Source: Allocoleopsis franciscana PCC 7113 (GTDB lineage Bacteria; Cyanobacteriota; Cyanobacteriia; Cyanobacteriales; Coleofasciculaceae). From it: a stretch of DNA of 64,000 nt. Shown here one piece after another: positions 4,327-29,669 of the stretch; within the stretch, counting starts at the first letter, position 1, and the number at the start of each line of letters is the position of its first letter. The DNA is taken from assembly GCF_000317515.1 (NCBI RefSeq), contig NC_019738.1, positions 4,428,001 through 4,492,000 of the forward strand. The letters run 5' to 3'. The notes under the pieces are model-generated. The model had not been told where the DNA came from, did no database searches, and saw nothing but the letters and a program-made list of their open reading frames with translations. Made by a program: the position numbers and the translations under genes.

Positions 4327-4367
4327 GTTTGACCTCGATCGTGTAGACCGCACATCTGAGTGATCAC

Positions 4368-4495
4368 TCTATCGGTGGGCATTCTGGCTTTTGAGTTCCC
4401 TATGGGTTAACTCAACACAGCTGCGGTACAGCGCCGGATTCGCACCGAACTTTCCCCGTTACCTCTGGTGGCTGACCCCCACTCGAACCGATTAG
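4368..4495 (-). promoter_or_regulatory. Cobalamin (B12) riboswitch
   Basis: Reading the minus strand, the core has GGGAAAGTTCGGTGCGAATC followed by CCGGCGCTGTACCGCAGCTGTG (conserved in B12 elements) and, further on, GCCAGAATGCCCACCG. The outer helix closes with ATCGGT (plus 4487-4492) against ACCGAT (4371-4376), next to GTGGG/CCCAC. A short palindrome, GAGTGATCACTC, follows at the expression platform, about 30 bases before the cbtB start. Adenosyl- or methylcobalamin binding would switch off the operon. The whole CbtB / membrane protein / DUF1636 unit lies downstream with no other obvious promoter. Confidence 0.95.
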
Positions 4496-4871
4496 ATTTT
4501 GGTACTTTACCACACTCACTGCTCTTGGTGGACAGTGAATTTTTTAATATTTTTGAACAATCGTTAGGTGGACACTGCACACTCAGGGTAAGAGGAGGTT
4601 TGCCAGTCTTGGTAAGCAGTGTCTATCCTACATGCTATACATTCACAAGCTTTTTTAATAACAGTGCCAGATGCATCCCATACTTGCTGCTGTGGCTGAT
4701 AACCTCATCTTTTGTTGCATTCCTGCTTGGAGATACGTCGGCTGTTGAAAATTCTTCCTTGTAAATCTGTTGCAACATCTTGACTTCCTTGGAGAAAGAT
4801 GTAACTAATGCATAAGAATATCCAGAAATGAGTTCGGTTTTTCAGTCCTTTACATCGACAAGAGTCAATCA

Positions 4872-23401: not shown

Positions 23402-24892
23402 TTATTGGTGTTGAATAATGGGTAGCTCAATCACAAACTCTGTCCCTTGGGTCACGGCTGAATGATAGAATAACTTTCCTTGATGTCGCTCAACAACAAT
23501 CTGATAGCTGATCGATAATCCCAACCCTGTCCCCTTGCCAGGGGGTTTGGTGGTAAAGAAGGGGTCAAATAACCGAGGTTGAATATCTACGGGTATACTT
23601 ACCCCATTGTCAGTGATGCGGATCATTACTCGATTTTCTTCGACCCGTGCCGTGCGAATCCAAATTGTTGGGGATGGATGGTGAGAGTCTTCCGTTTCAT
23701 CACTGATGCTGGATAATTCACAAGCCTCTTCCAATGCATCGATCGCATTACTCAGGATATTCATAAAAACTTGATTAAGCTGACCTGGGTAACACTCTAT
23801 CAAGGGGAGTTGTTCATACTCTCTAATGACCTGAATTTCGGGACGATGAGGCTGTTGCTTCAATCGGTGTTGCAAGATTAGCAGAGTACTATCCATGCCT
23901 TCATGAATATTGACCGACTTAAGTTCTGTTTCATCCAGGCGGGAAAAGTTCCTCAAGGACATAACAATTTGAGTGATTCGTTCCGCCCCTTCTTTCATCG
24001 AATCTAAAAGTTTGGGAAAATCTTCGGCAATAAATTCGGGTTCAATCTGTTCGAGTTGTTCGGCAATTTCTGCGATTGGATGGGGATAATGGCATTGATA
24101 CAAGTCAATTAGATTTAACAAATCTTGAGCATACTCCCTCGCTGGATGGATATTGCCATAGATAAAACTGGTGGGATTGTTGATTTCATGAGCCACTCCT
24201 GCCACTAATTGTCCTAAACTAGCCATTTTTTCTTTCTGCACCAATTGGGCTTGAGTTTGTTGCAGTTCTTGCAATGCTCGTTCTAACTGCATTGCTTTCT
24301 CTTGTTCTCTCTGCGTAAAATCGCGCAGGGCTTGTTCAGCTTGCTGGCGCTCGGTGATCTCTTCAAACATGTACAATCGACCAAAATAGCGATCTCCCTC
24401 ATCACGAATTTGAGCCGAAAAACGACGAATCGTGCGTCCCCCAACAAAAGGAATTTCATCTTCGACTACGGCTCGATTTTCCTCCGATTGCAGGGGTTTG
24501 CAGGATTCGGCAAAAGCAGCAACATCGGCAAGCAAGGGAATACAGGCGGGAATAATATCGTTGTTTTTGAGTTCACCCCGTTCCATAGACTCCTCTAGAT
24601 GTTCAATCCCCCAAATTTCACAGAAGCGATGGTTGAAGTAGAGTATGGCATCGGTGCGGTTGTCTACGACAAAGAACGCCAAGGGAGAGGCGCTAGTCAT
24701 GGAACGCAAGAACGCTTGATCCCAACGCAATTGGGCTTCAAACTGCTGGCGCTCAGTGATATCACGGCAAACACAAATAATTCCCCCGTCCTCCGTCAAG
24801 GTGAGGGATACCTCTTCGGCAAACGTACTCCCATCCCCTCTTTTGGCGATCGCTTCTCCGTGCCACCGTCCTGTTTGTAATAAAATAGGCAA
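23402..24892 (-). pseudogene. Multi-PAS sensor histidine kinase, C-terminal part
   Basis: These 496 residues hold a PAS/PAC end (VCRDITERQQFEAQ), a second PAS domain (about 55-185, ending MFEEITERQQAEQ), a coiled coil, and the kinase core. The H-box is GVAHEINNPTSFIYGN (phospho-acceptor His near 237), the N-box NQVFMNILSNAIDAL, the G1-box RITDNGVSIP, the F-box FDPFFTTKPPGKG, and G2 TGLGLSIS. All catalytic boxes look sound, so this stretch could still be a kinase if translated. It is in the same frame as the fragment above it, separated only by a TAG stop at 24998-25000, and has no good ribosome site of its own. Confidence 0.85.
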
Positions 24893-24997
24893 ACAGTCTT
24901 GTTCCAGGCGCTGGATTTCATCGGAGGAATAAAGTTCGTGCCATGTCTTCCCTAGGAGTTCGGTGCTGTTGTCGTAACCAAACAGCCTGACATGCGC

Positions 24998-25606
24998 CTA
25001 GTTCAAATAGGTGTACTCCTGCTGAGCATTAGTGATCGCAATGCCATCCATCGCCGCTTCTACCGCCGCTAACTGTCGCCGTAGGGTTTCTTCCGATTTC
25101 TTGCGATCGGTAATGTCTTCGACAACATAGGAAAAGCGCGATCGCCCGTTTGCCACTTTGCCGATAAAACATACGGTTGCGGATAACCATCTCGAATGCG
25201 TTGCTGTATTATGTTGGTACTCAAAACGAACGGGAGTGCCTGTGCGTTCACTCTCTCGGTAGTTTTCGAGCCACTGCTGTATGTGAGCCGGGGAAACTCC
25301 TAACTGACTCGCCAGTTGATTTCGCGTGGCATCCGGAGTCGTCCCAAAAAATTGCGCGGTTGTTTGGTTGTCAGAAAGATGCAAAATATCATCATCGAGT
25401 AGTTCCACCACACCCATCATCAGAGGAGAACTATTGTAGAAGCTACGTAAAATTGCTTCTTGTTCCCGTAGTTCTTCCTCGGCTTGCTTATGAGCGGTAA
25501 TATCATGAGCCACCGCATAAATTAACTGTTGTTGGGCACATGGAGTCGCTTTCCATCGCAGCCATTTGTAAGAGCCATCTTTGCAGGGGTAACGATTTTC
25601 AATCAA
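24998..25606 (-). pseudogene. Multi-PAS sensor histidine kinase, middle fragment
   Basis: The 202-residue fragment begins inside a PAS domain ([16 protein letters not shown], the PAC strand). It contains one full PAS (about 45-165, [13 protein letters not shown] to [14 protein letters not shown]) and starts another ([21 protein letters not shown]). It ends at TAG; the codons after it continue smoothly (AHVRLFGYDNSTELLG), so the stop is a single nonsense mutation, for instance CAG to TAG. Its upstream junction with the N-terminal fragment is a frameshift near 25603. Confidence 0.82.
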
Positions 25607-26021
25607 TAGTGTCTACACCCGTTATCAGCGTCTGAGCTTCAATTAGGGTAGCTTGATAGTCTTCAGGATGGACAAAATCAAAGTATGGTTTGGCTAGGAG
25701 CTCTGATTGAGTAAAGCCTAGCGTTCTTTCCCAGGCAGGATTGAGATGTTTAAAATATCCATCAAATCCCGCCACACACAACATATCGAGGGAAAGGGTA
25801 AAAAAACGCTCTCCTATCGGTAACTCGGATTCGGATGGTGCTGTCTTCAGTTCTGAACTGTGATACCGCGTTGCTTCCCTCTGATGGCACTCACAGCCTC
25901 TTGGGTGTTTTAAAATAGGTGAGATTCCTGAAGCATCAACATGCTGCAACTGTCGTTCAACACTTCCAGTCGATGGTTCAGGGTTGGAATTAGAGGAAAA
26001 AAAGGGGATATTACCGATCAT
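25599..26021 (-). pseudogene. Multi-PAS sensor histidine kinase, N-terminal fragment
   Basis: The 140-residue fragment has a disordered polar start followed by a PAS domain (FFTLSLDMLCVAGFDGYFKH, LNPAWERTLGF, YFDFVHPEDY). It breaks at [12 protein letters not shown] with TGA. The sequence at the break is ACTATTGATTGAAAAT. Restoring two T residues would give TIDFENRYPC, a common PAC reading; equally, a 4-bp tandem duplication of ATTG would explain it. Together the three pieces describe one gene of about 2.6 kb coding for a soluble sensor kinase with four or five PAS domains. Confidence 0.8.
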
Positions 26022-27725: not shown

Positions 27726-27994
27726 TGGGTTTGAGTGTTAACCATTGATTGTTTCCCTACTCCAAGAATATTCTGCCTAGTGCAGCATGGCAGAAATAAC
27801 TGACTAGCTAAAATCTCCCCAGCTCCCCAGCTCCCCCGCTCCCCTGCTTGCACAGAGGTAATCAGAAATTTTTGCCATCATGCACTAGATGCCATACCCC
27901 GCCAAAACGCCCCCTATCCTTCACTTAGAATCACAGACTACTGTCTTAATGCGTCAGTCCTAGCTATAACAGTAGTAGGGTGTATGTGAATAGC

Positions 27995-28165
27995 ATGAAA
28001 AATCAGGTGACTGTATAAGTCCTGAGCAATCCCTCTTTCATTACTCTCACCAGAGAATATTTTAAACGTCGAGCCTTGCGTCAAAGTTTCCGACTTTGGC
28101 GAGGAAACCTGTCTCAAAGCCAGCTCGTCATTTATTCTCTGTTCAGAGCAATAAAAGAGGGTTAA
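27995..28165 (+). pseudogene. Possible degraded small gene just upstream of the omega-RNA
   Basis: From ATG 27995 the frame reads seven codons, hits TAA at 28016-28018, then continues open for 48 codons to TAA 28163-28165. That stretch is rich in basic and aromatic residues (ITLTREYFKRRALRQSFRLW, then NLSQSQLVIYSLFRAIKEG). It looks more coding-like than random sequence but has no good start. It may be the remnant of a small host gene next to which the IsrB element inserted. The rest of the gap 27726-27994 holds a polypyrimidine/CCCC-AGCT tract and nothing else I recognise. Confidence 0.25.
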
Positions 28166-28380
28166 GTCAACTACTCACGGTTACTTCGTTGAACCGTGAG
28201 CTTGGAAAGGTCAGTTTTCAGTAAAAGTTGTCTACCGCATGAGTCTGATAATGGTACACACGTTTAGTTGTTTTCCTAGACTAAACCTCTGTAAAACCTC
28301 TGACTAGGTTGCTCTAAGAAAGGACATCTTTTATCAGATGGCGGTAAGGAACAAGTAACTTCTTGTAAGGATTATCTCCT
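28165..28380 (+). ncRNA. Candidate omega-RNA (HEARO-type) of the IsrB locus
   Basis: The 216 bases before the IsrB-like start are gene-free and rich in helices: CTCACGGTT (28174-28182) with AACCGTGAG (28192-28200), GTTTAGT (28262-28268) with ACTAAAC (28280-28286), CATCT with AGATG (about 28324-28339), and ACAAG (28351-28355) with CTTGT (28362-28366). It begins AGTCAACTACTCACGG and ends GGTAAGG...TAAGGATTATCTCC directly at the ATG, the layout of HEARO RNAs found upstream of IscB/IsrB genes. In that family the guide is the 5' end, which here would be the bases just before about 28165. The exact 5' boundary is inferred. Confidence 0.65.
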
Positions 28381-29484
28381 ATGCAACGAGTACCCGTAAT
28401 TTCACCTGATGGGCGTCCACTAATGCCTACCAAACCTTTAAGAGCTAGGCGATGGCTTAAAGAAGGAATTGCCAGAATCTATCTTAATGACCTGAACATT
28501 TTTGCTATTGTGCTCATCAATGAGCCGTCTGGATATGAAACTCAAAATGTGGTCATTGGCATCGACCCTGGCAAAATGTTTTCCGGCGTTGGCATTCAAA
28601 GTTCCAAGGCTACTCTGCTCAAACTTCATCTAATCCTTCCGTTCCCCAATGTCACTAAAAAGATGACAGCAAGACGGATACTTAGGAGGGTAAGAAGGGG
28701 TCGCAGAATCAACCGCAAACTGCCTTATGACCAGAGCTGTCATAGAGCTAAACGGTTTGACAACAGAGTCCAAAAGAAGCTGCCTCCCAGTATCAGAGCT
28801 AATCGTCAATTAGAGCTAAGAGTAGTCAAGGAAATAACGCGATTATTCCCTATTTCTAGCATCGTTTACGAATACATCAAAGCTCGTGGGAACAAGGGCT
28901 TTAGCCCTGCAATGGTGGGACAAAAAGTGATGTTGGAGTGGCTAGAAAAAATCGCACCAACAGCTACTCAATTTGGCTGGCAGACATCCAACATTAGGCA
29001 GTGGCTAAAACTTCCAAAAGATAAGGCTGACAAATCAAAAGCTGTGGAAGAAACGCACAGTAATGACGGTGTTGCACTAGCTGCTAGTCATTTCATTAAG
29101 TGGAAAGAATGGGAATCGAGTAATGCAAGAGGTGGTAACTGGAAGGGTAACGTTGTTGTTACATCAGCCCCCTTCAAGGTAATAGCCAAACCCAATCTTT
29201 ATAGGCGTCAGCTCCACTTCGAGAATCCCGATAGTCATAAGCCTAATCCCAACTAATACCGTAAGCGCAAGGGTGGAACAGCTACACCTTTTGGTTTCCG
29301 CTCTGGTGACTTTGTTCAAGCTGAGAAAGCCGGACAGATTTACAGAGGTTGGATTGGTGGTTATACCCAAACGGGTAAGTCCAAAAACATCTCAGTCTAC
29401 AACTATGAATGGAAAAGAATTGGACAATTCAGTCCTAGCAAGGTCAAATTACTTAAGCGCTCATGCAAATTATGTGTTACTTAG
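28381..29484 (+). pseudogene. isrB: IsrB-like RNA-guided RuvC nuclease (OMEGA), with one premature stop
   Basis: The first 291 codons have the PLMP start (VPVISPDGRPLMPTKPLRAR), RuvC-I (VIGIDPGKMFSGVGIQ, catalytic Asp near 59), and an Arg-rich bridge helix (TARRILRRVRRGRRINRK). RuvC-II is SIVYEYIKARG (Glu near 164) and RuvC-III HSNDGVALAAS (near 222). Only about 60 residues separate RuvC-II from RuvC-III, so the HNH domain of IscB is absent, as in IsrB nickases. A TAA at 29254-29256 interrupts the frame. It then continues in the same phase with GGTATPFGFRSGDFVQAEK and RIGQFSPSKVKLLKRS, the family's C-terminal domain, to TAG 29482-29484 (about 367 codons). The intact 291-residue part could still be made. 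Confidence 0.82.
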
Positions 29485-29496
29485 GGGAGATGTGTT

Positions 29497-29560
29497 GGAC
29501 GGCGTAGGGACTCTCGCCGTCCTGCTGTCCCTCCCCACCCTGCTGCGCCGAGGGTGGGGA
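29497..29560. repeat. Twin GC-rich hairpins after the IsrB gene
   Basis: GGACGGCG (29497-29504) pairs with CGCCGTCC (29515-29522); TCCCCACCCT (29532-29541) pairs with AGGGTGGGGA (29551-29560). GGGACTCTCGC occurs in the first loop and again after the second stem. They may form the right end of the IsrB element, as subterminal hairpins do in IS200/IS605-type elements, or a dispersed repeat. Confidence 0.5.
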
Positions 29561-29669
29561 CTCTCGCGAACACGTTGAAAAAATACGCAGCTTGGATGAA
29601 GACAGACCGACTTCACAATTGGTACACATAAAGCTTGTATCTTGCAATTTGTATCTTGCAAACACATCA

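What the first reader, a model, noticed from the sequence alone, without database searches (positions are those of the whole stretch)
28140..29490. OMEGA locus: candidate omega-RNA followed by an HNH-less IsrB-like nuclease gene
Seen: PLMP start, RuvC-I GIDPG, Arg-rich bridge helix, RuvC-II YEYIKARG, RuvC-III HSNDGVALA with only about 60 residues between the last two, and a C-terminal domain. The 216 bp before the ATG carry at least four hairpins. Known: IsrB proteins lack HNH, are about 350 residues and use an upstream HEARO-type omega-RNA as guide. Inference: this is an RNA-guided nickase locus, now carrying one nonsense codon.
Basis: partly seen in the sequence, partly recalled or inferred. 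Interest (0 to 1): 0.75.

Follow-up and report, generated by a model that had tools for sequence, protein, structure and literature searches.

The report
Broken IsrB RNA-guided nickase mobile element
This is a small cyanobacterial jumping element carrying an IsrB gene (a relative of the ancestors of Cas9) and its guide RNA; the family is already known, and this copy has a stop codon that cuts off the DNA-motif-reading end of the protein while the RNA stays intact.

Summary
Window 28166-29574 is a complete 1,409-bp IsrB (OMEGA) insertion element. An unoccupied orthologous site in a same-genus genome fixes both ends to the base. The next four bases are TTGA, the published TAM of the solved IsrB from Desulfovirgula thermocuniculi. 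The protein's best PDB match is that enzyme. All RuvC catalytic residues, the PLMP motif and the bridge helix are present, and there is no HNH.

The RNA upstream of the ATG is a real HEARO-type omega-RNA. Rfam HEARO scores it at 35.6 bits, below its 83-bit cutoff. Nine copies show 25 of 51 pairs with compensatory change (0/500 shuffles), and a model built from them finds the RNA upstream of more distant IsrB genes. The window copy breaks none of the 51 pairs.

A TAA at 29254-29256 removes the C-terminal TAM-interacting domain, including the counterparts of two residues shown to be essential. The truncated protein is therefore probably inactive. The genome holds three other IsrB copies with open frames, one 86% identical. 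Cyanobacterial IsrBs have already been tested experimentally, so this is a new, damaged member of a known family.

The parts
28166..29574 (+). whole IsrB insertion element (1,409 bp, no target duplication)
   Evidence: empty orthologous site in same-genus genome G001: flanks up to 28165 and from 29575 are contiguous there; homology with other copies starts at 28164-28166
28146..28165 (+). predicted guide (about 16-20 nt), taken from the flank left of the element
   Evidence: position relative to HEARO model position 1; guide 5' of the omega-RNA scaffold as in IsrB (PMC9581776); no other match next to NTGA in the genome at up to 3 mismatches
28166..28359 (+). omega-RNA scaffold (HEARO type); its first hairpin doubles as the left transposon end
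   Evidence: HEARO 35.6 bits; covariation; own model R1 141 bits (window was in the training set)
28381..29256 (+). isrB open reading frame, truncated (291 aa): PLMP, RuvC-I, bridge helix, RuvC-II, RuvC-III
29254..29256 (+). in-frame TAA at codon 292
   Evidence: relatives that keep this segment have Gln here
29257..29484 (+). in-frame remainder encoding the TAM-interacting (TI) domain, with R346 and Q349 (numbered on A1, first sequence) matching DtIsrB R323 and Q326
29497..29522 (+). right-end hairpin 1 (GGACGGCG...CGCCGTCC)
   Evidence: sequence; equivalent hairpins in other copies
29533..29559 (+). right-end hairpin 2 (CCCCACCC...GGGTGGGG), followed by ACTCTCGCGAACACG
29575..29578 (+). TTGA: target-adjacent motif (TAM) flanking the element
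   Evidence: a (G)TTGA follows the right end in at least a dozen independent insertions; DtIsrB TAM is TTGA (PMC9581776)

Best explanation
Shown by sequence: 28166-29574 is a non-autonomous element of the IS200/IS605 type carrying isrB and its omega-RNA, inserted directly 5' of TTGA. Inferred from tested relatives: an intact element makes an RNA whose 5' guide copies the flanking DNA. The IsrB-RNA complex then finds the same sequence next to TTGA, which exists only where the element is absent (the site after excision, or an empty sister site), and nicks the non-target strand, favouring repair that copies the element back. The element does not cut its own locus, because GTCA rather than NTGA follows the guide there. 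In this copy the stop codon removes the TAM-interacting domain, so its own protein is most likely inactive, while its RNA and both ends look intact.
For: Protein: RRXRR 1.6e-45; DtIsrB 8dmb is the best PDB match, and the profile aligns it through the TI domain at 3.7e-67; catalytic D62, E164, H226 and D229 are invariant; no HNH. RNA: HEARO match, covariation, and model R1 hits upstream of IsrB genes not used to build it (L013 4.9e-17, L010 2.5e-14, L003 6.2e-10). Mobility: exact empty site, four copies in the genome, many copies in Symploca-type genomes at different sites. TAM: TTGA after the element in many copies, identical to the published TAM. Damage: TAA before R346/Q349, the counterparts of R323/Q326, whose alanine mutants lose activity.
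Against: No experiment and no RNA-seq here. HEARO is below its gathering score. No Y1 transposase with these ends was found in the genome, only a REP-associated-type (RAYT-like) one and a fragment, so the mobiliser is inferred. The empty site in G001 reads TTTA instead of TTGA, so the pre-insertion motif is inferred from the occupied allele and other copies. That the nick promotes retention is inferred from TnpB-type systems (PMC11870625), not shown for IsrB.
Confidence: 0.93

Rival explanations
1. RNA-only stage: the protein is dead in cis, but the intact omega-RNA is still used in trans by another IsrB of the same genome, so the copy persists as a guide donor.
For: The window RNA breaks 0 of 51 conserved pairs; an intact 86%-identical IsrB with a closely related RNA lies at C1:557473-558345; a same-family genome carries a copy with the ORF deleted but the omega-RNA (100.8 bits, not in the model) and both ends kept.
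Against: The stop may simply be too recent for the RNA to have decayed. dN/dS of window against the 86% paralogue is 0.077, with no clear excess of non-synonymous change on the window branch. No data on cross-recognition.
Confidence: 0.2
2. The locus is fully active: the TAA is a sequencing error, is read through, or the 291-aa protein works without the TI domain.
For: The frame stays open for 75 further codons with conserved TI-domain sequence; low dN/dS.
Against: Mutating the single residues R323 or Q326 of that domain abolished DtIsrB activity (PMC9581776). The window copy also carries several radical changes at sites otherwise invariant among close relatives: S20L, K30I, Q44V, R119S. The contig is near-finished (7.47 Mb).
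Confidence: 0.12
3. It is an IscB or another RuvC protein not guided by RNA, with unrelated upstream hairpins.
For: NCBIfam's only good hit is guided_IscB, 96 bits.
Against: That hit is well under its 175-bit cutoff and covers only the N-terminal half; no HNH; covarying omega-RNA in the right place; IsrB is the best solved relative.
Confidence: 0.02

Closest known systems
DtIsrB (Desulfovirgula thermocuniculi), PDB 8dmb, Nature 2022 PMC9581776
   Same: Domain order, RuvC residues, no HNH, about 350 aa, omega-RNA directly upstream, TTGA TAM, TI-domain R and Q.
   Different: Window copy is truncated before the TI domain; its scaffold from model start to ATG is about 215 nt, against a 284-nt omega-RNA (20-nt guide included) in DtIsrB.
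CwIsrB (Crocosphaera watsonii) and DsIsrB (Dolichospermum), PMC9581776
   Same: Cyanobacterial IsrBs with working omega-RNAs and an NTG TAM.
   Different: Those are intact and assayed; this one is interrupted and untested. Their sequences were not compared here.
HEARO RNA, Rfam RF02033
   Same: Full-length model match upstream of the ORF, same overall architecture.
   Different: 35.6 bits against a gathering score of 83; most of the related cyanobacterial RNAs also score below it, so default Rfam scans miss them.
IscB
   Same: PLMP, RuvC-I, bridge helix.
   Different: IscB has an HNH between RuvC-II and RuvC-III and cuts both strands; absent here.
IS200/IS605-type TnpB element at G000:C1:3801603-3806057
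   Same: Shares the right-end sequence (97% over 31 bp, the 19-bp end motif exactly) and a left-end hairpin, in opposite gene orientation; TCAAC on its other strand.
   Different: Carries tnpB (PF07282, PF01385), not isrB, and is interrupted by group II intron sequence.

Membership tests
IsrB | N-terminal PLMP motif | tested here: met
   LMPT at residues 14-17
IsrB | RuvC-I/II/III catalytic residues and Arg-rich bridge helix | tested here: met
   D62, E164, H226, D229 and RRxRRGRR invariant in 12 sequences
IsrB | no HNH domain between RuvC-II and RuvC-III | tested here: met
   about 60 residues between; no HNH model hit
IsrB | C-terminal TAM-interacting domain with TAM-reading Arg and Gln | tested here: not met
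   encoded in frame but downstream of the TAA, so absent from the product of this copy; present in the intact paralogue L002
IsrB | cognate omega-RNA immediately upstream | tested here: met
   HEARO 35.6 bits plus covariation 0/500 and model R1
IsrB | NTGA-type TAM 3' of the target | tested here: met
   TTGA at 29575-29578 directly after the element; same in other copies
IsrB | RNA-guided nicking of the non-target strand | not testable with these tools
   needs a biochemical assay
HEARO RNA (RF02033) | score at or above Rfam gathering threshold (83 bits) | tested here: not met
   35.6 bits, E 8.6e-06 in 521 bases
HEARO RNA (RF02033) | conserved secondary structure upstream of an IscB/IsrB-type ORF | tested here: met
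   51 pairs, 25 with compensatory change
IS200/IS605 element | hairpin ends, insertion next to a fixed short motif, no target duplication | tested here: met
IS200/IS605 element | Y1 transposase encoded or acting in trans | tested here: inconclusive
   none in the element; genome has only a REP-flanked Y1 and a fragment, neither with these ends
IscB | HNH domain and NCBIfam NF040563 above cutoff | tested here: not met
   96 bits against 175, N-terminal half only; no HNH

The most novel reading that the evidence does not exclude
OMEGA copies whose nuclease gene is broken or deleted (the window, and the ORF-less copy in a same-family genome) may persist as RNA-only elements: their omega-RNA keeps guiding an IsrB made by another copy, so each new insertion adds a guide without needing a gene.
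Probability: 0.18. Interest if true: 0.45.

Novelty: new member of a known kind. Interest (0 to 1): 0.22.

Why it matters
The locus adds a cleanly delimited cyanobacterial IsrB element, with an exact empty site, TAM and guide, to a family close to the ancestor of Cas9. It shows that default Rfam thresholds miss most of these cyanobacterial omega-RNAs. The combination of a broken gene, an intact RNA and an intact paralogue makes trans-guiding between OMEGA copies testable.

Tried and rejected
Default Rfam scan: no HEARO hit; needed the permissive search on a short stretch. A genome-wide HEARO search found only a 33-bit hit at C1:5558852 that model R1 did not support, taken as chance; that search also missed the window's own RNA, so it is not sensitive. 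The Y1 transposase at C1:6681900 was considered as the mobiliser and set aside: it is flanked by REP-like palindromes, not by these ends. The fragment at 6145731 likewise. In another genome the right-end motif lies by an IS607-type serine recombinase plus TnpB, but no matching second end was found, so no conclusion. Guide target elsewhere in the genome: none. Polarising the TTTA/TTGA difference failed: other family genomes match only the downstream gene, not the insertion point. Original papers on OMEGA and ISC elements are not held. No structure prediction was run, as sequence homology to a solved IsrB was sufficient.

Full report
What was checked. The claimed ORF is real: ATG at 28381, TAA at 29254-29256 (291 aa), then the same frame stays open to TAG at 29482-29484. 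Pfam RRXRR matches at E=1.6e-45. NCBIfam guided_IscB matches only the N-terminal half, at 96 bits against a cutoff of 175. Among solved structures the best match is DtIsrB (8dmb), E=2e-29 with the single protein and 3.7e-67 with a profile of 12 relatives, which also aligns the C-terminal TAM-interacting domain. PLMP, RuvC-I D62, RuvC-II E164, RuvC-III H226/D229 and the arginine-rich bridge helix are invariant or nearly so in the alignment, and only about 60 residues separate RuvC-II from RuvC-III. No HNH model was hit.

The RNA. At default thresholds Rfam reports nothing here. Searching the short stretch permissively gives HEARO at 28166-28359, 35.6 bits, E=8.6e-06; related loci also give sub-threshold HEARO hits upstream of their ORFs. 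The minimum-energy fold of the single sequence is only mildly unusual (z -1.52). The alignment of nine copies settles the matter: 51 consensus pairs, 97.4% of cells paired, 25 pairs with changes on both sides, none of 500 shuffles as good on any measure, and structures slid by one to three columns collapse. A covariance model of the core (R1) finds the same RNA upstream of IsrB genes not used to build it: L014, L017 and L008 at about 1e-30 or better, L013 5e-17, L010 2.5e-14, L003 6e-10, L004 0.0025. The window copy breaks none of the 51 pairs.

Element ends, TAM, guide. A same-genus genome (G001) has the orthologous site without the element. Its alignment to the window runs up to 28165 and resumes at 29575 with nothing missing or duplicated. 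The element is therefore 28166-29574. The flank begins TTGA, and (G)TTGA follows the right end in at least a dozen other insertions at unrelated sites. DtIsrB prefers TTGA (PMC9581776). The guide region is the flank just left of 28166. It has no other match next to NTGA in the genome at up to three mismatches, and at the occupied locus itself GTCA follows it. The intended target is thus the empty site. G001 has TTTA there, which would not be recognised if the published preference holds; which state is ancestral could not be decided.

Damage. The TAA lies in a segment where the relatives that retain it have Gln. It removes the TAM-interacting domain. Numbering was cross-checked: in the solved chain, with the offset that puts Arg of KRIGQ at 323, Gln falls at 326 and the phosphate-lock Asn at 265 as the paper states; these correspond to window R346 and Q349, both after the stop. 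Alanine mutants of R323 and Q326 lost activity (PMC9581776). dN/dS between the window frame and the 86% paralogue is 0.077, so the reading frame was under constraint for most of its history and the stop is probably recent; a sequencing error cannot be excluded.

Family context. The genome carries four IsrB-type genes (100, 86, 58 and 46% identity); the other three have open frames of about 365-376 aa. Close copies are abundant in Symploca/Coleofasciculus-type genomes, and relatives occur on cyanobacterial plasmids and in Microcystis phages. The right-end motif occurs without mismatch at one other place in the genome, the end of a TnpB element (3801603-3806057) interrupted by group II intron sequence, whose other end resembles the IsrB element's left hairpin. 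A TnpB gene also abuts this end in another genome (L065). The two kinds of element, with opposite gene orientation, probably use the same transposase and target motif; that transposase was not found here. In genome G017 a derivative has lost almost the whole ORF but keeps the omega-RNA (100.8 bits) and both ends.

Verdict. Membership in IsrB is met on every testable feature except the C-terminal domain, lost in this copy through the stop. It works, or worked, as an RNA-guided nickase element; the nicking and retention steps are inferred from tested relatives (PMC9581776; TnpB: PMC11870625). Cyanobacterial IsrBs from Crocosphaera and Dolichospermum have already been assayed. New member of a known kind, modest interest.

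Noticed in passing
L068 1183-1346 (Microcystis phage Ma-LMM01, NC_008562.1), L097-L099; IMG/VR loci L072, L075, L079, L081, L082: Microcystis phages carry an IsrB gene with omega-RNA (R1 about 70-80 bits), and directly upstream of the RNA several degenerate copies (3 to about 9) of the RNA's own guide-adaptor repeat (GTCACTAACCCCGCCC...), often at a 38-nt period and varying in number between phages. It resembles a proto-CRISPR array beside an IsrB, but the short spacers resemble one another. Deserves its own study.
   Followed up: partly
L067 1746-2136 (minus strand), genome G017: About 390-bp derivative of the same element: omega-RNA and both ends kept, isrB almost wholly deleted.
   Followed up: partly
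L026 2101-6553 (G000:C1:3801600-3806053): TnpB element with the same ends as the IsrB element, its tnpB interrupted near the zinc-finger region by group II intron sequence with two reverse-transcriptase ORFs.
   Followed up: partly
L015 3445-3666: A canonical HEARO RNA above the gathering score (87.2 bits) sits where an IsrB ORF breaks off after codon 150, so one OMEGA element appears to have inserted into another.
   Followed up: no
window 27772-27892: Dispersed intergenic repeat of about 120 bp with CTCCCC-rich core: 47 matches in the genome, roughly 15 near full length; most of it is missing at the orthologous place in G001.
   Followed up: partly
window 23402-26021 (minus strand): PAS/histidine-kinase coding sequence split over three adjacent ORFs, looks like a frameshifted or decaying sensor kinase gene.
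   Followed up: partly
window 4357-4507 (minus strand): Cobalamin riboswitch, 42.7 bits.
   Followed up: no
L064 4045-4721 (genome G106): The same right-end motif lies upstream of an IS607-type serine recombinase plus TnpB; no matching second end found.
   Followed up: partly
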